A DNA stretch of 64,000 nt, taken from the NCBI RefSeq assembly GCF_000616095.1, contig NZ_BAMS01000001.1, positions 806,001 through 870,000 of the forward strand, written 5' to 3'. A program made the position numbers and the translations under genes. The first letter of the stretch is position 1; the number at the start of each line of letters is the position of its first letter. Origin of the DNA: Sneathiella glossodoripedis JCM 23214 (lineage in GTDB: Bacteria > Pseudomonadota > Alphaproteobacteria > Sneathiellales > Sneathiellaceae). The notes under the pieces are model-generated. The model was given only the letters and a program-made list of their open reading frames with translations, was not told the DNA's origin and did not search any database. Shown one piece after another: positions 16,488 through 64,000 of this stretch.

Positions 16488-16539
16488 CTCTAACCTCGAG
16501 GTATATTAGACCCCGACCTTCAGTCAGGGTTCTCTCGAG

Positions 16540-16602
16540 CCCCGACCTTTTAGCGTTTCTTTTACGTGGCCGCAAGCCGGTCGGCACAAATCACCACGTG
16601 GC
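16540..16602 (-). promoter_or_regulatory. SAM-II riboswitch
   Basis: On the minus strand the core reads CGTGGTGATTTG, then a loop with CCGACC, GGCTTGCGGCCACG, AAACGCTAAAAGGTCGGGG. This is the SAM-II pseudoknot: CCACGT pairs with the later strand, and CCGACC pairs with the 3' GGTCGG. It matches the alphaproteobacterial metA/metZ leader pattern, with conserved GCTAAAAGG at the 3' end. S-adenosylmethionine binding should shut off translation of metZ. The start codon lies 53 bases past the aptamer. Confidence 0.92.
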
Positions 16603-16605
16603 GCA

Positions 16606-16633
16606 AATATACGCTGCCGCTAATTCCTGTCAA
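16606..16633 (-). promoter_or_regulatory. metZ promoter
   Basis: Minus strand TTGACA (16633-16628) and TATATT (16611-16606) separated by 16 bases. The predicted transcription start falls at the first base of the SAM-II aptamer, which supports both calls. Confidence 0.75.
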
Positions 16634-53053: not shown

Positions 53054-55030
53054 TCATTGGTTCTGCTGGGGATTGGTATATTTGTCGACGACTTGAAGGA
53101 TCTGTTCTTCGGTAAACGGTTTAGTGACCACGTCGTTCATTCCCGCGTCCAGGAATTGCTTTCTACTATGATCAAAGGCGTCTGCGGTGAGTGAAATAAT
53201 GGGGAGTGACTGCAACCCATCCAGATTGCGAATATGGTGCGTCGCTTCCATTCCATCCATTTTTGGCATGTGTATGTCCATCAGGATAATGTCTGCCCAG
53301 TGCTTTTTAGCTTCCTGGAGTGCCAATTCACCATTGGTGACGTGAATTACATGATGACCGGCATTTTCCAAAAAGGCGACGATAATAGCTGCATTTACTG
53401 GATTGTCTTCTGCGACGAGGACTTTTACGCAGGTAGAGGCGGTTTTTTCTGTTGATATCTCTCTGCCACTGAGGCTGCTATGAGTGATGTTTTCCTCGCT
53501 AATTTTGAAGGGGAGGATGACTGAGAACTCAGAGCCGATGTCTAGCGTGCTCCTTACAGCGATCTGCCCGCCCATGAATTCGGTCAATTGTTTGACGATG
53601 GAAAGACCAAGTCCGGTGCCCCCAAATTTTCGAGTGATTGAATTGTCAGCCTGATTAAATGGTTCGAATATGCTATCGATCTTATCTTCAGCTATGCCAA
53701 GGCCTGTATCTGATACAGTAAATTTATAAGCCAATCTGGCTTTCGATACCTCAAAATCTTCGAATTTTTCGATCCTGACGCTCACACTGCCCTTGTCGGT
53801 AAATTTAATCGCGTTCGTTACCAAATTGGTGAGTATTTGCCTGAGTTTTACAGTATCTGCTTTCAGCGGAATGTCATCAAACTTGGGAAATTCAGTTGAG
53901 AAGGTCAGGTGCTTCTCTCTTGCGAGTGTTTGAAAGGGCGTCAGAATGTGATCGAGGAACTCAGTGGGGTCAAAAGTCACTTCTTCCAGTTCCAACCGGC
54001 CGGTTTCAATTTTGCTCATATCCAGAACGTCATTTACGATCGAGAGCAGGGATGACCCGGATTCAAGTATTGTCTTTACGTGTTGCCGCTGGTCTTTATC
54101 AAGTTCAGTTTTTTGCAGGACTTGCGCAATGCCAAGAACACCATTGAGAGGCGTGCGGATTTCGTGGCTCATGGTTGCCAGAAAATCAGATTTTGCGCGG
54201 GTCGCCGCCTCTGCCTGTTCCTTGGCTATGGATAATGCCGCTTCGTTTTTTTTCTGCTCATCAATGTTATAGATCCAGAAGAGATGGCAGGGTTCACCCT
54301 TATATTCAAATGGTTTCCAGCTAATTGAGACCCATATTTCATGTCCTTGCCTATGTTTGCCGACTGCTTCCATCTGCTCGACATAGCCCTGCTGTCGATA
54401 GATTTCCATAAATCTCTCGCGGTCTTTGGGGCGGGCCCACATGTCAGCAGCTTTGTGCCCTAATATTTCTTCATGGGTATAACCGAGCAAATTGGAGTAT
54501 TTGGAATTCGCATATTGAATGGTTGAGTCCGCTTCACGGGTAATGCCGATTGCTACAGGGCTTGCTTCAAAAATTTGTTTGAGGCGTTGTTCGTTTTCAT
54601 GAGTAAGTTTCGCTGCCCGTTTTCTTTCCGTAATATCTGAGAGCCAAAAAAGTTCTGCATCAAGATCATTGAATCTGACAGCTTGAGAATTGATCAGCGC
54701 CCACAGGTGTGAACCATCAAAGCTTTTCAGTTCAACTTCCGCATCAGCAAAGAACTCTCGTTTCCTGAATTTTTCCAGTAGTTGCTGATAATGAGATTTA
54801 TCCAACCAAATATCGGAAAGATTCAGATCACTGCTTCGAAAATTATCGGGAACGGCCAGCATTTTCAGGAGGGATCTGTTGCAGTAAATGACTCTGGCGG
54901 ATTGGTGACTGACAATGAAAGCCCCTAATGGACTATTGTCCAGAACCTCTTGAATACCCGTTACTTTATTTTCTGGAGCCAGCAAAAACTTTAACCTGAT
55001 AGTTCGATATAGTTCCCAAGCAAGAAACAA
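53054..55030 (-). CDS. Hybrid sensor histidine kinase (PAS-PAS-HisKA-HATPase-REC)
   Basis: 658 residues. Two PAS domains (about 25-150, 155-285) precede HisKA with the phospho-histidine in SDFLATMSHEIRTPLNG, an HATPase domain (NAIKFTDKGSV, DTGLGI, GGTGLGLSIV) and a C-terminal receiver with VLVAEDNPVNAAII and phospho-Asp in ILMDIHMPKMDG. No membrane helix is clear. The start is TTG 55030 and looks truncated: an ATG at 55045 in another frame would join if one base were added. No cognate response regulator is adjacent. Confidence 0.9.
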   Translation of the reverse strand: MFLAWELYRTIRLKFLLAPENKVTGIQEVLDNSPLGAFIVSHQSARVIYCNRSLLKMLAVPDNFRSSDLNLSDIWLDKSHYQQLLEKFRKREFFADAEVELKSFDGSHLWALINSQAVRFNDLDAELFWLSDITERKRAAKLTHENEQRLKQIFEASPVAIGITREADSTIQYANSKYSNLLGYTHEEILGHKAADMWARPKDRERFMEIYRQQGYVEQMEAVGKHRQGHEIWVSISWKPFEYKGEPCHLFWIYNIDEQKKNEAALSIAKEQAEAATRAKSDFLATMSHEIRTPLNGVLGIAQVLQKTELDKDQRQHVKTILESGSSLLSIVNDVLDMSKIETGRLELEEVTFDPTEFLDHILTPFQTLAREKHLTFSTEFPKFDDIPLKADTVKLRQILTNLVTNAIKFTDKGSVSVRIEKFEDFEVSKARLAYKFTVSDTGLGIAEDKIDSIFEPFNQADNSITRKFGGTGLGLSIVKQLTEFMGGQIAVRSTLDIGSEFSVILPFKISEENITHSSLSGREISTEKTASTCVKVLVAEDNPVNAAIIVAFLENAGHHVIHVTNGELALQEAKKHWADIILMDIHMPKMDGMEATHHIRNLDGLQSLPIISLTADAFDHSRKQFLDAGMNDVVTKPFTEEQILQVVDKYTNPQQNQ

Positions 55031-55106
55031 TAGTGCACCATCGAAGTTGATAAATATTTAAGAAATTCCTGAATAACTTTGGTCGGTTGCCGGGTTTCAA
55101 TCAGTG

Positions 55107-56302
55107 TTAAGCGGCGTGATTGGAAAGCCCCACTCTTTCGGCTGAAAAAATCAAGCTTGCCATTGTCCCCTGGCCTACGTGGCTTTTAATCTGAAAATCG
55201 CAGTCATGCAGTTTGGCGAGCGCTTTTACAATCGCAAGGCCAAGTCCCGTCCCTTCGGATTTGTTGTGGTGTGCCTGAGCAACTTGCATGAAAGGTTCGG
55301 TGATTTTTTCAATCTGATCTTCGGCGATCCCAATACCCGTATCTTTTACACAAATACAGAGTTTGTGTTTTGCGCATTCCGAAATAATGAGTGTTACCTC
55401 ACCACCAGCCTGAGTGTATTTAATCCCGTTTGATACCAGGTTGAGCATCATTTGCTTCACCGCCCGTTCATCAGCCTTGATCACAGAAGTGTTGGCAGGA
55501 AGTCTCAGCTTGAGTGAGATGTCTTTTTTCATGGCTAGGACCGAGCAAATCTTGATCACGTTTCGAGCCACCGAACCAACGTCAATCAACTGCTCATTAA
55601 GGTTGTAGCGACCAGCTTCAATTTTGCTCATGTCCAGAATATCACTGATCATGGCCAGAAGATGCTTGCCGCTTTCTAGTATGTCTTCAGCATATTGCCG
55701 ATAGCGCGGTGGTTCGACCGGTCCGAAAGCTTCCTGGCTGATAAGCTCTGAAAAACCGATAATTGCGTTTAGCGGCGTGCGCAGCTCGTGGCTCATGCCA
55801 GCCAGAAATTGCGATTTAACCAGATTTGCATGGTTGGCAAGTTCAGTACTTTTGGCAAGTTGGCGGTTTTGCAGGCGAGTTCGTTTGACGCTTTCTTTCA
55901 TCAAGCCAACGCGTTACCCATTCCCACATACTGACCGTTGTCAGTGATGATAAATCCGGCAGTCAGCGCGGTTTCATATCCGGTTGTTATCATATGCTCA
56001 ACCGTATCAATCGTCTCACTTATTTCGACGATCAGAGGTTCTTTGAACATTAATTCTGCTACAGAGCGCTTCCCGTAAACTGCATGTCCAAATTGTGTTG
56101 CAAGTTTGATTGTAAGGTCGTCACGGCCAATCAAACCGATTGGATAACCATCCTGTAACACTGCAAAACCGGTAGCACCCGCCAGTCTCCTAAAAAGCTC
56201 TGCGGTTTCATGGCAGGTCGTTGTGCTTTGCAGAGCCGGAACGTTGTCCAGTATCACGGCCATTGTCGCCGGTTTATTTTTTGACAGTTCTGATACATTC
56301 AA
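55107..56302 (-). CDS. Histidine kinase with N-terminal CBS-like sensor (frame broken once)
   Basis: The N-terminal half has two CBS-like units: HETAELFRRLAGATGFAVLQDGYPIGLIGRDDL and YGKRSVAELMFKEPLIVEISETIDTVEHMI...GFIITDNGQYVGMG, then the frame shifts near 55903 at GCTTGATG; adding one T joins NALALMKESVKR to the kinase half: coiled coil, HisKA (GMSHELRTPLNAIIG), HATPase (NLVSNGIKYT, DTGIGIA, GTGLGLAIV). About 398 residues from TTG 56302, which follows GGAG by 8 bases; a longer frame to 56452 exists. Probably cytoplasmic. Same base pattern as the argF break. Confidence 0.85.
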
Positions 56303-56615
56303 TTCTCTGTCTCCAAAACGTGGTAAGCAAACGCGTTTATTGGCGGTTGTTTCAATTTCAGAAACTACACAGATGAAAGCAAAGGCTGTCAAAGGATGTG
56401 TTGTGAATTTATTGTGACAAATTAAGTCTTTGTTAAATATCGTAAAAATCAAATTTAGATGGCGCGGCTTTATGTGGGGTTTGGCAGCTTATTTTTTTAA
56501 CGTTTAACGCTGATTTTAAGAAATTACATTCGTCCCGGTTGGAAAGTGGGTCAGGTTTACAGCGCCGCAATTAGGTGCAGCGTGACTAAACGAATGGAAT
56601 CGCTATCGCGTCAGA

Positions 56616-57889
56616 TCATAATAGTGTTGCAAGAAATGCGGTAGTTGCGGCAACGATCAGAAGGATTGTAATTCCCCATTTCAAGGCAAAAAGCAAAAAC
56701 AGGCTGAGTATGAAGATTGAAAGCGCATGCAGGTTAAGTGAGGTTGGATCGGGGATCCAGAAGTAAAACAATCCTGCTTTTTCAAGCGTCACCGATGAAA
56801 ACAAGACATGTAGTGAAAACCAGACTGACAGGTTTAATATCACACCGACAACTACTGCGGTTATGGCTTTAAGGGCGCCTGAAAGCCGGGGCATTGTGGT
56901 CAGTTGTTCAATATAGGGGGCGCCAGCAAAGATCCAGATAAAGCAGGGAACAAACGTGACCCATAATGTGACACCTGCCGCAATAATCCCCCCCATTAAG
57001 CCAAATTCTTTGTAACCGGCAATAAAACCAACGAATTCAGTTACAAGGATGAGCGGCCCCGGTGTCGTTTCCGCAAGTCCTAATCCATCAAGCATTTCAG
57101 CAGCGGTTAGCCATCCCAGTTGCGTGACTACTTCCTGGCTCATATAGGCCAGAACGGCATAGGCCCCCCCAAATGTAACCATTGCCAGCTTGGAGAAAAA
57201 TATGCCGATATCTGACAGCAGCGGATAGGGAAAAAATAAATCTATGATAAGAATTGGCGAAAACCAGATTACGGCTCCCACAATGCAGATGGCAATTGTG
57301 CGCACAAAGTTTGCTTGCGGCTCTTCGACTGCCAGGGTTTCAGAGCTTTCCAAATTCCAGAAAAAGAAACCAATGACAGCGGCAGAAGCGATCAGCAAAG
57401 GAAAGGGGATTGCCAGAAAAAATATGGCACAAAATCCAAGGACAGCTATCATCCAGGCGCCAATACCCTGAAGCGCTTTTCGTGAAATGTTCAAGAGGGC
57501 CTGCAGTACAATTGCAAGAACAGCGGCTTTAATCCCAAGGAAGAGAGTTTGCGTGATTTGAAGGTCGCCATAAGAGGTGTAGAGCAGGGCGAGGATAAGC
57601 ATCACCCGGCGCCCGGCAAAACAAACAGAAGGCCAGCGATTATTCCACCTGATATACCGCGTAACCGCCAACCGGCATAGGTTGCAAGCTGCATGGCTTC
57701 AGGTCCTGGCAGTAACATGCAAAAACTCAGAGCTCTGAGAAACTGGGCTTCGGTTAAAAGCTTGCGATCTTCAACCAGCTTTTGATGCATAATAGAAATT
57801 TGCGCCGCGGGTCCGCCAAAAGATTGCAATCCAATTTGAGAAAACAGTTTCCAGAAATTTTTGGCGTCTACGGAGTTGAAGCTATTCAT
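56616..57889 (-). CDS. chrA: Chromate transporter ChrA (frame broken once)
   Basis: About 424 residues repaired. Long-chain CHR family with two homologous halves, about ten membrane segments. N-terminal half begins MNSFNSVDAKNFWKLF and has SFGGPAAQISIMHQ and the LLPGPEAMQLATYAGW motif; restoring one G in the run at plus 57604-57606 continues PGAGVMLILALLY and the second half, which has FGGAYAVLAYMSQEV and LAETTPGPLILVTEFVGF. It exports chromate, probably coupled to the membrane potential. No chrB or chrF nearby. Confidence 0.9.
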
Positions 57890-58199
57890 TCTGTTGTGCC
57901 GGGTAAAACAAGGTTTGTAAATTCGATATAAGTTCAGGGTCGCTTTTAGTGTTCGTGATTACCCTTTTAGGTCAGCTTTGGAAATTTTTTAAAGATTTTT
58001 TGAACTTGCGCGTGCTGATCCACGTCAGACTGACAAGGTTTGTGAGTTCTATGACCCAGATTACCGCGGGTTAGAATTCGACAGAAACTGTGGGTAAAAG
58101 GCAACACCAGTTCAGGGTTGGAGACTAATTGTGCGCATTGTTGAGCTTTCGCTTATTTGTTTTGTGGGTTGAGAGGTAAAACTACTTAAAATTCCGATT
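57890..58199 (+). other. Gap upstream of the barrel-protein gene
   Basis: About 310 bases between two divergent genes. Must contain the promoters of chrA and of the 58.2 kb gene set, but no consensus element stands out. Several G-T rich stretches, no hairpin worth noting. Confidence 0.35.
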
Positions 58200-60278
58200 A
58201 TGACGGGAGGCGGGGACATTTTTCGGAACTTATCGATTTTAGCAATAACCTGCATTTTTTTAATTGTGGGACAAGGTTCAGTAGGTGCTGCCGTACAGGC
58301 AGAATTTGTTGCGCCGTCTGCGGGATCAGATGTTGTCCGGATCAAACTTCCAGAAGATATTGATATTTTAACTCTCACCACGTTGGCGGTGGAACTGGAT
58401 GCGATTGATGTAACCGCAATTTTGTCACTTGATGGAACCGATTTTGTTCTCAAACCATTGAAGCCATTTGCGGCGGGTATTCATCAGGTGCGATTGCTCG
58501 ATATTACGAACGCTGAAAACCCTGTGGAACTTGGTTCGTGGATTTTCGAAATTCATGGCGGCTCATCTTCAAATGCTGGCGCATTGGCGGATTTACCAGA
58601 TGAGACTGAATTGTCGCGTGCAGAAGCCATGCTCACAAGTGGCAGTATTCGTTTTGATAGCCTGACAGAGACGAGCCTCAGGTTGGCTGAACGGAATATT
58701 ACAAATGCCCCGGACAAGGGTATCCTGAGCGGCGCTGGTGATTTCAATGCAAATCTGGAAGTTGGTAAACTGCAACTGCAGTCGCGCGCAAATTACTTCT
58801 TGCAAACGGATAACGACAAATCTCTCACCGGGAATGCGCTGGACTTGGGTGAATATGAGCTGTCTTTGAATTATTCAGGAGAAGATCTCGCATTGGGGGC
58901 GACGCTTGGCCATCATGATATCGGTGTCCAATCTTTAACGATGAGCGGGTTTTACCGTCGGGGCGCTTCCGTGCAGATTGGTGACGCTGCCGGCCATGTC
59001 CGTGCGAAAGCATTTTCGCTTGGCACTGAGTCAATTGCCGGCGGGGAAAACTTTAGCGGATTGAATAACGGTGATGAGCGGATTTCTGGCGGAAGCCTGA
59101 CAGTGCAGCCCTTTTCGCTTGAGCCGGGGGCATTGAAAATTACGGGTATTTTCTATGATGGCAAGGGTGCGGGTATTGGCGATGGCATAATGGTGACAGA
59201 GCCGGTGGCTGAGGGGCGGGGCTGGAGTGCTATTGTTGAAAAATCATTTGCAGATCAACGCATTGTTGCTCGGGGAGAATACGCCCATTCAATCTATGAT
59301 CAGGATGGTGATGCCGGGTCTGCACCAACCAAAGACAGTGATGCGATTTCAATTTCACTGGACCTGAGGCCGTTTGCATCTCCGCCGATCTGGTTGGGAG
59401 ATACGGCCGATATATCTCTAGGTGTTTCTTACAACCGGTTGGGAACCTATTTCCAGTCGTTGGCCAACGCAGGCGTTGCAGCTGATCGCGAAGCATATGC
59501 GCTCTATGGTTCAATGAACTGGGGCAAGTCTTCGAGTAATCTTCAGTATATTTATGAGACCAACAATGTGGATGGTCTGGAAGCTGTTGCAACGGATTAT
59601 CTGCATAACCTGTCCTTTTCGACCAATTATGCGATGGAGCCATTCGAAGGCGCAATGAGCTGGTTAGGTACGCCAAGTGTGTATCTGTCGGGGTTTGTCG
59701 CAGATGCTGGACGGCTGGATACTCCCAGTGGCTATCTTGGGCCAGGTACAAACAATCTCACGAAATCGCTTACGCTTGGCGGAAATACAAGTGTAGGAAA
59801 CTGGTCATGGGGAGTGTCACATACTATTTCATCTTATGAAGACTTTACGAACACAAGTAGTGATACGCTGAATAATGGGACTGCTTTTAATGTAAACTGG
59901 ACAGACTTTGATCGCTTTAACTTTGGAGGCGCAATCCAGTTTAATGTGTTTGAAGATCTGGACGAGAATACAAGTAATTTCGGTACAAATATCGGTGTAG
60001 ATGTTTCCGCAGCAATAATTCGCGATATTCTGGATCTGAACCTGGATTATAATTTGAACCTTTCAGCGGGAAGCGGCGACCAACCAGATACACATTTGGT
60101 AAATGGTGAAATTGAATGGACTTTCCTGCAAGCGGAACCCAATAACCCTGGGATGGCGTTGGCATTGGGCGGTTCGATGGAGAGTAGCAATGGAAATGCT
60201 GACAGCGCCGATGATGAAACAATCTACCAGGTCTTCCTTGTTTTTCGAGTTAAGGCTCCTTTCGCCTATGATTACTAG
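58200..60278 (+). CDS. Putative outer-membrane beta-barrel protein
   Basis: 692 residues. Signal peptide about 1-30; then a beta-rich N-terminal domain (about 32-120) like an immunoglobulin or cadherin unit; then from about 180 on a long alternating hydrophobic/polar pattern with many Gly, Asn and aromatic residues at strand ends, closing with an aromatic-terminated strand (FRVKAPFAYDY). This resembles a barrel, not TonB-dependent (no plug or TonB box). No family recognised. ATG 58200 has no clear ribosome site. First of five co-directional genes leading to sigma, anti-sigma and protease; the next gene starts 11 bases before its end. Confidence 0.7.
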   Translation: MTGGGDIFRNLSILAITCIFLIVGQGSVGAAVQAEFVAPSAGSDVVRIKLPEDIDILTLTTLAVELDAIDVTAILSLDGTDFVLKPLKPFAAGIHQVRLLDITNAENPVELGSWIFEIHGGSSSNAGALADLPDETELSRAEAMLTSGSIRFDSLTETSLRLAERNITNAPDKGILSGAGDFNANLEVGKLQLQSRANYFLQTDNDKSLTGNALDLGEYELSLNYSGEDLALGATLGHHDIGVQSLTMSGFYRRGASVQIGDAAGHVRAKAFSLGTESIAGGENFSGLNNGDERISGGSLTVQPFSLEPGALKITGIFYDGKGAGIGDGIMVTEPVAEGRGWSAIVEKSFADQRIVARGEYAHSIYDQDGDAGSAPTKDSDAISISLDLRPFASPPIWLGDTADISLGVSYNRLGTYFQSLANAGVAADREAYALYGSMNWGKSSSNLQYIYETNNVDGLEAVATDYLHNLSFSTNYAMEPFEGAMSWLGTPSVYLSGFVADAGRLDTPSGYLGPGTNNLTKSLTLGGNTSVGNWSWGVSHTISSYEDFTNTSSDTLNNGTAFNVNWTDFDRFNFGGAIQFNVFEDLDENTSNFGTNIGVDVSAAIIRDILDLNLDYNLNLSAGSGDQPDTHLVNGEIEWTFLQAEPNNPGMALALGGSMESSNGNADSADDETIYQVFLVFRVKAPFAYDY

Positions 60279-61368
60279 ACTTATTGCATTTCTTCTTTTT
60301 ATTTTGGCACCGGCACTTGCTCAGGCAAATGTTAACAGTGTCACGCCCTCACCTTCCTCTGTAGCCGTTGCTGTTGTTGGCGCTCCTCGCGTGACGGTGA
60401 CATGGACGGTGAACCGAACAGCAGCTACCACAGCCACAGTTTCAGTTACATCCGCCAATGCTGATCTTAGAGTGGGCGGCGTTGTGGTCTCTACGCTTGG
60501 AAATATTTTGTCGCAAAGTTCCTCTTTGATTGGCGGGCAATCCGAAACTTTAAGATTTACCGAAACCCTTGTGTTAACTCCTGCGCAAGCAAACACTGTA
60601 GCAACCTCTGATGCGGGTAGTGTTACCATCACCCGAACATTCACCGATACTGAGACTACGCTTGTTGGAACAATGCAAGTCGCGGCAGGGGGCGGCAATA
60701 CAGGTGATTTGCAGCTAAGACGAATTGATCTGTCGTTTGAAAATGATGCAAGAGCAGACGTCATCCGGCAAGGAGATAGGCAGCGCGCAGTTGCTCGGGT
60801 CAGTTATCGCAGTTCGGGTTTGCTCAAAGGAGAGTGGAGAATTGTTGACCCCACGAGCAATTATGGTTCTGCCCGATATCGGATATTGCAGGTGGTCCGT
60901 CAGCAATTGGTCAGCTCGGGTCAGGGTGAGACACGTATCGTCAGTCCACCTTTACCAACTCAAAAAAATGGATTGTATCTGGTTACTTTCGTTGCCGAAG
61001 ATGAGAGCGGAGTTCTTGATTTTCCGGTCTTGCGTTATTTCGTGTTACAAGGATCAACTGAAGCACCGGTTGAAAATCTGGATGTTGTATCGCCTGCTGA
61101 GGGGGCTATCCTTGCAACAGATACAGTTTTTTCGTGGTCATATGTGAAGGGCGCCTACGCCTACCAAATCGAACTGTTCGAGCCTGCCAGTGAAGATATC
61201 GTTACTGGAAAACTAGTTGGAGCCGAAACTCAGAATTTGAACTTTTCTGTATTCTCACTGGATCGATTAAAGCCCGGTCAAGTCTATGATTGGCGTCTTA
61301 GAGCTATTGATCGAGGTGGAAAAATCTTGGGTGTATCAGCGCGCCGTAAAATTATGATGCCCCAATAG
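60268..61368 (+). CDS. Secreted beta-sandwich protein of unknown function
   Basis: 366 residues. Signal peptide 1-20 (AQA cut). N-terminal half is Ser/Thr/Ala/Val-rich (SPSSVAVAVVGAPRVTVTWTVNRT) like an Ig or big-domain repeat; the middle has GEWRIVDPTSNYGSARYRILQVV; the C-terminal 80 residues contain SWSYVKGAYAYQIELF and YDWRLRAIDRGGKILG, resembling the fibronectin-like domain of FecR-linked envelope proteins. Overlaps the barrel gene by 11 bases and ends 11 bases before the sigma gene, so it belongs to the operon. It could be the periplasmic or surface partner of the sigma system. Confidence 0.75.
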   Translation: MITRLIAFLLFILAPALAQANVNSVTPSPSSVAVAVVGAPRVTVTWTVNRTAATTATVSVTSANADLRVGGVVVSTLGNILSQSSSLIGGQSETLRFTETLVLTPAQANTVATSDAGSVTITRTFTDTETTLVGTMQVAAGGGNTGDLQLRRIDLSFENDARADVIRQGDRQRAVARVSYRSSGLLKGEWRIVDPTSNYGSARYRILQVVRQQLVSSGQGETRIVSPPLPTQKNGLYLVTFVAEDESGVLDFPVLRYFVLQGSTEAPVENLDVVSPAEGAILATDTVFSWSYVKGAYAYQIELFEPASEDIVTGKLVGAETQNLNFSVFSLDRLKPGQVYDWRLRAIDRGGKILGVSARRKIMMPQ

Positions 61369-61379
61369 GCAGCTAACAT

Positions 61380-61931
61380 ATGACAGCAACGGACACAGAA
61401 TTGATCAGGAAAATCAGTGAAGGCGATGAGAAGGCTTTCGCTGATTTTTATCGTATGTTTGAAAAACGCCTTTACCATTTTATCAAACAAAAATTGAACG
61501 ATCCGTTTGAAGCAGCCGACATACTAAATGAAACTTTCTTGGAAGTCTGGCGTAAAGCAGCGACATTCGAAGGAAGATCTAAAGTATCAACCTGGCTATT
61601 TGGAATAGCTTATTTCAAAACGGTGGATCGGATGCGTAAAAACGGCAAACTGGTTGTTGGAGATGAGGAAATACCGGAGCAGGTTGATGAAACGGCTGAT
61701 GCAATGGCGTGTCTCCTCGCCAAGGAAAATGGTGCACATATTCAATTTTGTCTCGAGCAACTAAAACTCGCTCATCGTACTGTTATAGAGTTGGCCTTTC
61801 TCAATGACATGGCCTATGGCGAAATAGCAAAAATTGTAAGCTGCCCGGAGAATACGGTGAAAACCCGCATGTTCCATGCAAAGCAGTTGATGAAAAACTG
61901 CTTGTCCAACCGATTGGGAGGCACCGCATGA
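61380..61931 (+). CDS. ECF-type RNA polymerase sigma factor
   Basis: 183 residues. Region 2: DPFEAADILNETFLEVWRKAATF and STWLFGIAYFKTVDRMR; region 4: LKLAHRTVIELAFLNDMAYGEIAKIVSCPENTVKTRMFHAKQLM, with the helix-turn-helix. It is distinct from the two other ECF factors in this window (minus-strand operon at 31.6 kb and ECF41 at 25.1 kb). ATG 61380 is 11 bases after the previous stop; the stop overlaps the anti-sigma ATG (61928), so the pair is coupled. Confidence 0.94.
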   Translation: MTATDTELIRKISEGDEKAFADFYRMFEKRLYHFIKQKLNDPFEAADILNETFLEVWRKAATFEGRSKVSTWLFGIAYFKTVDRMRKNGKLVVGDEEIPEQVDETADAMACLLAKENGAHIQFCLEQLKLAHRTVIELAFLNDMAYGEIAKIVSCPENTVKTRMFHAKQLMKNCLSNRLGGTA

Positions 61932-62535
61932 GCAGAAAAATAGAAGAATTGCTTCCGTTTTATGTGAACAACACCCTTGATGAGACGGAGCGAGCGGAGG
62001 TTGAAAAGGCGCTGGATAACAGTGAGCGTCTTCGCGAAGAGTTGGAGATTTTGCGTAAATTGCGAAGCGAGATGCAGCAGATTGAACTGGAACAGTCACC
62101 AGGCGAATTTGGGCTTAAGCGATTGCAAAATAGTCTGAAGAGTGAAATCGATAAGCCTTCCGCCGAAATAGCAAATGACAACAGGTCAGCTGTATTCTGG
62201 CGAGTTGGAGCTGTGGCGGCTTGTTTGTTGCTTGCAATTCAGACTGTGATGTTTGTACCAGATTGGAGCGGCGAAGACCTGGATGCGGCGAGTGGTGTGA
62301 GCGTTCAGCCTCATGGAGTGCTTTACAGTATTACCTTCGCCCCGGATGCCCGTGAAGAAAATATGCGATCGTTGATGCTTTCGCTAAATGCTCGGTTTGT
62401 TGACGGCCCATCAGTCTTGGTGTTTACAGAGTATCCATTCCAGGAGAGAGGGAAGCTGTGCTCAAGAACTTGAGAGCTCGCATCCACCTGATTGAAAGTG
62501 TTCAGGTTGATCAGCCTGAAAAACTGGAAAAATGA
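61928..62535 (+). CDS. Transmembrane anti-sigma factor with periplasmic domain (frame broken once)
   Basis: About 202 residues repaired. The N-terminal cytoplasmic part (MSRKIEELLPFYVNNTLDETERAEVEKAL) resembles zinc-finger anti-sigma factors but lacks the HxxxCxxC ligands; one membrane helix lies at about 90-110; the periplasmic region 111-202 is a compact alpha/beta unit (GVLYSITFAPDAREENMRSLMLSLNARFVDGPSVL). The frame breaks near 62420; one G gives LGVYRVSIPGEREAVLKNLRARIHLIESVQ to the stop at 62533-62535. The stop overlaps the protease ATG (62532). It should restrain the adjacent sigma factor; the periplasmic domain may be the sensor. Confidence 0.8.
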
Positions 62536-64000
62536 AACGGGTTCTGATCAGTTTATGCTTTGTATTTTCCCTGGCAGGGTTAGCCGTAGCACAAACAGGG
62601 ACCAGTCAGCCTGACCCAGTGACGCGGTCCAATGATTTTCAAGTGGTTGATCCCGATAGGGAACCGAAGAGAAGAATTCCCGCTACAGGCCCGGCCTCAA
62701 CTTTACCAGGAGCTGCTCCTCATCGTCTGAGTACGGATAATGAACCAGCCTTTTTGGCAAGTAGTCCCGGTTGTATCCGACCCAATGAAATTCTGTTGGT
62801 TTCAGGTGAGCGATTATCTGTTTTGCAGATTGAAAACGCTTATTTACAGCAGGGCTCTTTATCCATTCCGCTCAAATTGCTCAATCGGAGTGATCGCCAA
62901 CTGGCGTTTAGATTGCCAGCAGCAATCCCGGATGAAAATAGTGAATATAGCCTAAGTCTCCATGATAAACGCAGAGGGAATATTCTCTCAGGTTTAAAGG
63001 TGAGTGCATGTCCGGTAATCACAGTTGCACAAGTAGAAAGCGGTCAAGAGTTACTGGTATTTGGCGCACTGGAAGTGCAGGACCCTGTGCGGGCAGAGCT
63101 TGAAAATTTGGGAGTGGTGATCGGGCAAAGTTACTCTCTTGTCGGGTTAGGCCAGTTCATGTTTGTCATACGCAGTCAGGAGCTCACAAGTCTGAGAGAT
63201 CAACTGAAGGATAAATTTCCGGATGTATTGATTGATCAAAATCTGGATTTAGAAGCGTCGGCTGCTAAACCGCGTCTATATGCAGCCCGCATGATTGGCT
63301 GGGAAAATAGTCAGCGTTGCGGCGATACTAATGCTTCTTTGAAAATCGGGTTGCTTGATGGAGAAATAGAAATTTCACATCCTGCCTTTAAGGGAGGTGG
63401 AATTGTTACTCATGATTTCATTGTTGGGCGCGAAAAAGACAATTCACATGCAACGGCAATCGCGTCCGCTCTGATTGGTCATGCGCCGGAATTGGGTATA
63501 CAGGGATTATTGCAAAACATAATTTTGCATAATGCGATTGTTCTGCGTCAAAGGCAGGACGGAGTGGCAAAAGCAAGTGTAGAAGCAATAGTGCTCGGGA
63601 TGGACTGGATGATAACCAGTGGCGTTCGCGTTGTAGGGATTTCACTGGCAACTTTACAAGAAAACAGGGTTTTGGAAAAAGTGGTTTCGATAGCGAATTC
63701 CAAAAGCCTGCTGATTTTTGCCGCGGCGGGTAACTTTGGGCCTGAAGCAAGGCCTTCTTACCCGGCAGCCTTGCCGGATGTTTTTGCGATTACGGCAGTG
63801 GATGCTGCGTTTCGTTTGTTTTCAGGAGCTAATACCGGACGATATATCGATTTTGCTGCACCCGGTGTTGATGTTTGGCTCGCGATGGCGGATGGAAAAG
63901 CTGGTTATCAAACAGGTACCAGCTTCGCGGTGCCCTACGCGATGGCAGTTGCTGCCAATTATTTGAAGCGAAATACTGCTCTTTCAAGGCAGGTGCTTGA
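62532..64000 (+). CDS. Subtilisin-family (S8) serine protease, runs off the window
   Basis: 489 codons visible, no stop before the end. Signal peptide 1-20 (LAVAQ). Residues 170-255 look like a propeptide or beta-alpha inhibitor-type domain (LLVFGALEVQDPVRAELENLG...). Catalytic triad by position: Asp276 in GLLDGEIEI, His306 in DNSHATAIASALIG, Ser464 in GTSFAVPYAMAVAA, with oxyanion Asn401 in AAAGNFG. Spacings 30 and 158 match subtilisin. The Asp and His boxes are atypical (DGE for DSG/DTG, HAT for HGT), so specificity may be altered. ATG 62532 overlaps the anti-sigma stop. Predicted periplasmic or secreted. Confidence 0.88.
   Translation, partial: MKRVLISLCFVFSLAGLAVAQTGTSQPDPVTRSNDFQVVDPDREPKRRIPATGPASTLPGAAPHRLSTDNEPAFLASSPGCIRPNEILLVSGERLSVLQIENAYLQQGSLSIPLKLLNRSDRQLAFRLPAAIPDENSEYSLSLHDKRRGNILSGLKVSACPVITVAQVESGQELLVFGALEVQDPVRAELENLGVVIGQSYSLVGLGQFMFVIRSQELTSLRDQLKDKFPDVLIDQNLDLEASAAKPRLYAARMIGWENSQRCGDTNASLKIGLLDGEIEISHPAFKGGGIVTHDFIVGREKDNSHATAIASALIGHAPELGIQGLLQNIILHNAIVLRQRQDGVAKASVEAIVLGMDWMITSGVRVVGISLATLQENRVLEKVVSIANSKSLLIFAAAGNFGPEARPSYPAALPDVFAITAVDAAFRLFSGANTGRYIDFAAPGVDVWLAMADGKAGYQTGTSFAVPYAMAVAANYLKRNTALSRQVL

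What the first reader, a model, noticed from the sequence alone, without database searches (positions are those of the whole stretch)
58200..64000. Five-gene envelope module: barrel protein, beta-sandwich protein, ECF sigma, membrane anti-sigma, subtilisin-like protease
Five co-directional genes are packed with overlaps or tiny gaps (11-base overlap, 11-base gap, ATGA, ATGA), so they form one operon. Four act in the membrane, the periplasm or outside; one redirects RNA polymerase. The family types are known, but I do not know this exact combination as a described pathway. The simplest model is that the surface or periplasmic partners detect a condition, the protease cleaves or is inhibited by the anti-sigma factor, and the sigma factor switches on its genes. 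This is an inference from order and topology.
Basis: partly seen in the sequence, partly recalled or inferred. Interest (0 to 1): 0.7.

Follow-up and report, generated by a model that had tools for sequence, protein, structure and literature searches.

The report
Sigma switch paired with secreted subtilisin
A marine bacterium carries a conserved gene set in which a membrane-held transcription switch has an outside part that resembles the removable cap of a protein-cutting enzyme encoded by the next gene, and the switch appears to turn on a set of exported proteins.

Summary
The five genes are real, co-directional and conserved. Three junctions are as described; the fourth is not: the anti-sigma gene is frameshifted near 62414 and stops at 62473. 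Other genes of this genome are broken alike, so assembly error is likely. The protease ends at 64082, outside the window. Of 59 named loci with this anti-sigma, 54 have the protease and 52 the sigma; 16 have all five genes. The core is sigma, anti-sigma, subtilisin; genes A and B look like outputs. First, the anti-sigma's outer domain resembles a subtilisin prodomain: best profile match to the protease's own prodomain E about 1e-4 (0 of 150 column shuffles as good), and 11 of 25 tails hit Pfam's fervidolysin prodomain. No structure model was possible. Second, TGAAC-N17-CG[TA]C precedes 12 of 17 operons tested (shuffles at most 1) and scattered genes for exported proteins; two of these families occur, within the genus, only in module carriers. 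Best model: the subtilisin docks on its prodomain-like partner, starts anti-sigma destruction and releases sigma for an exported-protein regulon. Module and regulon are well supported; docking and cleavage are inferred. New variant of a known kind.

The parts
58001..58026 (+). ECF-type promoter motif TGAAC-N17-CGTC, 173 bases before the first gene
   Evidence: Motif TGAAC-N17-CG[TA]C upstream of 12 of 17 A-containing operons tested; shuffle mean 0.03, max 1 of 500
58200..60278 (+). Gene A: signal-peptide-like N-terminus (by eye), Ig/CopC-like N-domain (weak), long beta-rich region; barrel unproven
   Evidence: relatives in 16 of 59 named loci and, with the window, 6 of 24 genus genomes
60055..60080 (+). 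Second match to the motif inside the 3' end of A, upstream of B; conserved in relatives but explainable by the coded peptide (LNLxxGSGD)
   Evidence: function undecided
60268..61368 (+). Gene B: secreted (by eye), beta-sandwich protein with C-terminal fn3/Ig-like domain
   Evidence: fn3 hit in 9 of 14, Ig_Rha78A_N in 10 of 14 relatives at E<=0.1; window copy below the cut-off
61380..61931 (+). ECF sigma factor
   Evidence: Sigma70_r2 1.7e-13 and r4_2 7.7e-11, over cut-off
61928..62473 (+). Membrane anti-sigma factor (zf-HC2-like cytoplasmic domain, one membrane span by eye, outer tail); reading frame broken near 62414
   Evidence: zf-HC2 25.3 bits, cut-off 22.2; frames
62321..62535 (+). Prodomain-like outer tail of the anti-sigma (second half only in the shifted frame)
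   Evidence: relatives' tails match the S8 prodomain profile and PF22148
62532..64000 (+). Secreted subtilisin (S8) protease, continues to 64082; own prodomain-like domain at about residues 170-240; catalytic D276, H306, S464, oxyanion N401
   Evidence: Pfam 1.6e-16; PDB subtilisins, best 2e-55; residues conserved

Best explanation
This is an autoregulated ECF sigma / membrane anti-sigma / secreted subtilisin switch that drives a regulon of exported proteins. The anti-sigma holds sigma at the membrane. Its outer tail is a prodomain-like domain built like the propeptide of the subtilisin encoded by the next gene. The mature subtilisin docks on this tail as it would on its own prodomain and cuts it (or its stalk), which starts stepwise destruction of the anti-sigma by the site-2 protease. 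Freed sigma transcribes its own operon from TGAAC-N17-CG[TA]C, plus separate genes for exported beta-sandwich/CARDB proteins. Shown by sequence: module, promoter motif, dispersed motif-bearing genes, intact catalytic residues. Inferred: docking, cleavage and its activating direction; the signal is unknown.
For: Core conserved: of 59 AS loci 52 have ECF and 54 have S8; S8 directly downstream in 53 of 54. Four loci keep AS-S8 with no ECF found, so AS-S8 is the tightest pair. Prodomain profile against AS tail: hhalign E 9.9e-5, 59 columns; 0 of 150 column shuffles as good (best 0.0017), reversed 0.26; five other pairings 0.066-0.28. PF22148 Fervidolysin prodomain hit by 11 of 25 tails, best 4.2e-5. 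Catalytic D, H, S in 37, 36, 36 of 37 proteases. Promoter 12 of 17; at other spacings from 12 to 22 at most 1. Families x and y occur in 6 of 24 genus genomes each, all module carriers; motif upstream of 8 of 9 x and 8 of 8 y genes. Motif hits just ahead of a gene: 24 of 38 in module genomes, 0 of 12 in genomes without; within the genus 14 of 17 against 0 of 12. M50 site-2 protease present.
Against: hhalign probabilities are only 21-62 %; one direction of the extended comparison aligned just 26 columns and a hand-picked subset gave E 0.0011. A ferredoxin-like fold is common; single tails also hit ACT_4 and NIL. PDB profile searches with either domain found no prodomain; only 1 of 21 S8 prodomains hit PF22148. 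In the window the tail is frameshifted. Nothing shows that the protease meets or cuts the anti-sigma. Five of 17 operons lack the motif, and its T/A third base was allowed after seeing (strict CGTC: 6 of 17, four of them close Kiloniella relatives). In G000 alone the motif is not commoner than its reversed control (7 against 16).
Confidence: 0.5

Rival explanations
1. The protease is only an output of the sigma factor, as reported for the S. meliloti RpoE6 target SMa0142; the tail is an independent sensor whose likeness to a prodomain is incidental.
For: PMC6180224 (passages) lists a serine protease as an RpoE6 target and calls the divergent arrangement widely conserved in group ECF26. Here too the protease lies behind the sigma-type promoter.
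Against: In S8 loci with another ECF type (16 read: 11 divergent, 5 co-directional) the anti-sigma tail is of another kind by eye; four loci keep AS-S8 with no ECF found.
Confidence: 0.25
2. The tail is a brake: it caps and inhibits newly exported protease, and anti-sigma occupied by protease stays stable. Falling protease (export block, loss to the outside) frees the tail and turns sigma on, restoring supply.
For: Prodomains are inhibitors as well as substrates (established knowledge of subtilisins, recalled); the protease is in the operon that carries the motif, which would give a homeostatic loop.
Against: No test here separates this sign from the activating one; subtilisins usually cut bound prodomains in time (recalled).
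Confidence: 0.2
3. Regulon real, but the protease processes the exported regulon proteins (maturation or release) and does not touch the anti-sigma.
For: x, y and other motif-bearing genes encode proteins with signal-peptide-like starts; a shared regulon would explain co-inheritance.
Against: Does not explain AS-S8 adjacency in loci that lack A and B, nor the domain likeness.
Confidence: 0.2

Closest known systems
ECF26-type sigma with divergent serine protease (S. meliloti RpoE6 / SMa0142; PMC6180224, passages read)
   Same: ECF sigma, anti-sigma and a serine protease gene together, protease a sigma target
   Different: Protease divergent there, co-directional here. ECFs of the 16 divergent S8 loci match this one weakly (E 3e-4 to 2e-13), those of the 52 AS/ECF loci at 1e-37 or better; anti-sigma tail different. 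That SMa0142 is S8, and that the divergent loci are ECF26, was not tested.
RsiV / sigmaV of Bacillus, anti-sigma as receptor for lysozyme (PMC5014341, PMC4183432; listing and start of abstract seen)
   Same: Outer domain of an anti-sigma would bind a specific enzyme, and binding would lead to stepwise proteolysis
   Different: Enzyme here is a self-encoded subtilisin in the same operon, not lysozyme; the tail is prodomain-like; binding not shown
RseA / DegS / RseP sigmaE cascade (PMC8103513, passages read)
   Same: Membrane anti-sigma, serine protease outside the cytoplasm, site-2 protease
   Different: DegS is an inner-membrane HtrA-family protease with a PDZ domain; here an S8 protease with a signal-peptide-like start (by eye) and no PDZ hit
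ECF54 with subtilase neighbours (PMC8999054, passages read)
   Same: ECF gene conserved near a subtilase
   Different: ECF54 is proposed to be controlled without an anti-sigma; this system has one

Membership tests
ECF sigma with class I membrane anti-sigma | Sigma regions 2 and 4; anti-sigma domain plus membrane span directly downstream | tested here: met
   Pfam r2, r4_2 and zf-HC2 over cut-off; ATGA overlap; membrane span read by eye
Subtilisin (S8) protease | Catalytic Asp, His, Ser and oxyanion Asn | tested here: met
   D276, H306, S464, N401; present in 37, 36, 36 and 37 of 37 aligned proteases
Subtilisin prodomain (PF22148-like) | Anti-sigma tail matches a prodomain family model over its cut-off | tested here: inconclusive
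   11 of 25 tails hit at E<=1, best 4.2e-5; window copy broken; the cut-off was not shown
ECF26 with divergent protease | Protease transcribed divergently from the sigma gene | tested here: not met
   Co-directional here; protease directly downstream of the anti-sigma in 53 of 54 named loci
ECF26 with divergent protease | Sigma belongs to group ECF26 | not testable with these tools
   No ECF group models held; the classification paper is not in the library
Regulated intramembrane proteolysis (RseA/RseP type) | M50 site-2 protease in the genome | tested here: met
   PF02163 hits over cut-off; best copy lies in two frames in this assembly. The family is near-universal: 14 of 14 control genomes
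Regulated intramembrane proteolysis (RseA/RseP type) | Stepwise cleavage of the anti-sigma on signal | not testable with these tools
   needs experiment

The most novel reading that the evidence does not exclude
A class of anti-sigma factors has captured a subtilisin prodomain as its sensor, so a dedicated secreted protease addresses transcription through its own propeptide-binding face: the balance of free protease, own prodomain and membrane tail sets expression of a scattered exported-protein regulon.
Probability: 0.35. Interest if true: 0.78.

Novelty: new variant of a known kind. Interest (0 to 1): 0.62.

Why it matters
The outer domains of many anti-sigma factors have no known ligand (general knowledge). 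Here sequence points to a specific partner, encoded next door, and to a readable set of target genes with a defined promoter, so the whole loop can be tested in cultured marine bacteria. If right, it shows how a protease inhibitor domain can become a receptor, and gives a compact protease-addressed gene switch.

Tried and rejected
Programmed frameshifting of the anti-sigma: rejected, because the 11 relatives aligned read through in one frame, and chrA (two frames), gene y and the best M50 protease copy are also broken in this genome, so assembly error is likelier; a true mutation is not excluded. PDB profile searches with tail and prodomain found no prodomain. AS and S8 fell into one BLAST cluster through a single edge; taken as an ORF-calling artefact and not used. 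A longer motif (TTGAACYT-N15-CGTCAGA, up to 2 mismatches) was about as common as its reversed control in G000 (23 against 19), and the shorter forms were rarer than theirs (3 against 6; 7 against 16); the case rests on position and conservation. The internal motif in A may only reflect the coded peptide. A barrel in A could not be shown. Rows left out: one search used 17 operons; L074/L034, L078/L031, L081, L018 and L022 were left out because their upstream DNA is cut short, L030, L032 and L089 as duplicates. In one search the truncated L031 had no motif and L034 had one 20 bases inside the called start. One search examined 38 of 39 hits of module genomes (G011:C1:1204528 not fetched) and 12 of 14 of module-free ones (two of G010 not fetched); its gene and signal-peptide rules are crude and home-made, missed some obvious signal peptides and counted at least one doubtful gene (L169). 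The spacing count used too loose a rule for ECF (51 of 52); one search corrects it to 50 of 52. In five loci the protease ORF start is over-extended into the anti-sigma.
Full report
What is there. The window is G000:C12:806001-870000. Sneathiella is the likely genus: genome G023, same genus, has a module-bearing contig of the same length and gene layout as JAEPMY010000005.1, titled Sneathiella sp.. Five + strand genes lie at 58200-60278 (A), 60268-61368 (B), 61380-61931 (ECF sigma), 61928-62473 (anti-sigma, AS) and 62532-64082 (subtilisin, S8; its end read from L002). The fourth is not: the AS frame shifts near 62414 and stops at 62473; the C-terminus that relatives have continues in another frame up to the ATGA at 62532. 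The neighbouring chrA gene aligns in two frames to its G005 relative, and gene y and the best M50 site-2 protease copy are also broken, so indel errors in this assembly are likely.

Conservation. Within 24 genomes of the genus, A occurs in 6. The close protease type occurs in those 6 plus G007, whose contig ends at the start of the sigma gene; G020 has only an S8 without AS beside it. A class sample of 387 genomes has the S8 profile at E<=1e-30 in 47, which includes other S8 types. Full A-B-ECF-AS-S8 order is seen in the window and L017, L019, L021, L025 (same genus) and L030, L031, L032, L034 (other genera). A scan of named genomes with an AS alignment, without using the protease, gave 59 loci: 16 with all five genes, 2 with B-ECF-AS-S8, 32 with ECF-AS-S8, 4 with AS-S8, 2 with AS-ECF, 3 with AS only, at E<1e-8. 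Some are cut by contig ends. Record titles include Kiloniella, Curvivirga, Denitrobaculum, Bosea, Frigidibacter, Tepidicaulis and, further out, Methylotetracoccus and a Hydrogenophaga bin. S8 lies directly downstream of AS in 53 of 54 loci (L101 the exception), 15 of them with a 4-base overlap; ECF directly upstream in 50 of 52 (not L101, L106).

The anti-sigma tail. Tail and S8 prodomain share the order strand-helix-strand-strand-helix-strand, judged by eye on the alignments. hhalign gave E 7.8e-4 (probability 25 %, 53 columns) for the first sets, five other pairings giving 0.035 to 0.32. For 72 loci it gave E 9.9e-5 (58 %, 59 columns) in one direction and 4.8e-4 (32 %, only 26 columns) in the other, five other pairings giving 0.066 to 0.28. 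A hand-picked subset gave 0.0011 (21 %). 150 column shuffles reached 0.0017 at best and the reversed profile 0.26. These E-values are for single comparisons. Separately, Pfam's Fervidolysin N-terminal prodomain (PF22148) is hit by 11 of 25 tails at E<=1, best 4.2e-5, while each other family is hit by one tail; with full-length AS it is 11 of 39. Against: PDB profile searches found no prodomain for either domain, and only 1 of 21 S8 prodomains hits PF22148. In 16 S8 loci with another ECF type (of 22 asked; 11 divergent, 5 co-directional) the neighbouring anti-sigma has a different tail by eye.

Promoter and regulon. TGAAC-N17-CG[TA]C lies upstream of the first operon gene in 12 of 17 A-containing loci (misses L019, L080, L083, L100, L107); 500 shuffles gave 0.03 on average and at most 1; other spacings from 12 to 22 gave 0 or 1. 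The T/A choice was made; strict CGTC gives 6 of 17. The loci are not independent: four of the 12 are close Kiloniella relatives. Bosea-type three-gene loci have a like site near the called start of the sigma gene (6 of 14 loci tested). A sixth family, x, stands directly upstream of A in many relatives and belongs to a cluster found in 13 of the 59 loci; in the window's genome its relative is on C7 with the motif just upstream. A motif search also led to gene y on C9; three y relatives carry a CARDB domain over cut-off, and one follows S8 in G007. Across the genus x is found in 6 of 24 genomes (G000, G004, G005, G011, G014, G023) and y in 6 of 24 (G000, G005, G007, G011, G014, G023), all module carriers. 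The motif precedes 8 of 9 x genes (not L152, near a contig end; two of the 8 are operon sites already counted) and 8 of 8 y genes; the broken y of the window's genome gave two places, of which one was read. In 8 module genomes (four of the genus, four of three other genera) against 9 module-free ones of the genus, a motif search gave 39 and 14 hits, reversed controls 20 and 14. Of the hits examined, 24 of 38 lie just ahead of a gene in module genomes (18 with a signal-peptide-like start) and 0 of 12 in module-free ones, Fisher p 1e-4; these 24 include operon, x and y sites. Within the genus alone it is 14 of 17 against 0 of 12, p 1e-5. Other hits lie ahead of further families with signal-peptide-like starts in Kiloniella and relatives.

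Mechanism. Release by stepwise proteolysis, with site-1 and site-2 cuts, is established for RseA (PMC8103513, passages). RsiV shows that an anti-sigma's outer domain can be the receptor of an enzyme (PMC5014341 and PMC4183432, listing and start of abstract). I propose that here the receptor domain is a prodomain look-alike and the enzyme is the subtilisin of the same operon. The sign (activating cut or stabilising cap) is open; I favour the cut because prodomains are natural substrates of their proteases (recalled). The input signal is unknown. A and B, not found beside most core loci, are probably outputs.

Literature. Searches with anti-sigma/ECF/subtilisin-like/S8 peptidase (2 papers), extracytoplasmic function/anti-sigma factor/subtilase/genomic context (20 of 48 listed), anti-sigma/propeptide/subtilisin/sigma factor/S8 family, ECF26/serine protease/anti-sigma (20 of 226 listed), anti-sigma factor/prodomain/subtilisin, fervidolysin/anti-sigma and sigma factor/anti-sigma/S8 family serine peptidase/operon (10 of 1,597 listed) showed, in the titles and abstract starts listed, no paper on this pairing. 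The library lacks most subscription papers and the 2021 ECF reclassification, so the gene arrangement may already have a group number there.

Noticed in passing
56616-57889 (- strand): chrA-like chromate transporter (named by eye) split over two frames; its G005 relative is one open frame. Points to indel errors in this assembly.
   Followed up: partly
16530-16607 (- strand): SAM_alpha riboswitch, 65 bits.
   Followed up: no
L090, L091, L099: Anti-sigma relatives of this family with no hit to the sigma or protease profiles in the locus; the same strains or isolates also hold an AS-S8 pair (L087, L085, L086).
   Followed up: no
L085, L086, L087: AS-S8 pairs with no ECF found in the locus; sigma partner unknown.
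   Followed up: no
L043, L052, L055, L056, L059, L067: A second ECF/S8 arrangement, divergent, whose anti-sigma tail bears a conserved FCR..ACR-like motif of unknown fold (by eye; the motif varies, e.g. YCRHY).
   Followed up: partly
53054-56452 (- strand): Two histidine kinase-like genes (one hybrid) and a CBS-like protein in a row, read by eye.
   Followed up: no
L196:2984-4474, L206:551-2320, L212:1449-2588: Family with signal-peptide-like start and an SGRVxSWKxW motif behind the sigma motif in three genera; function unknown.
   Followed up: no
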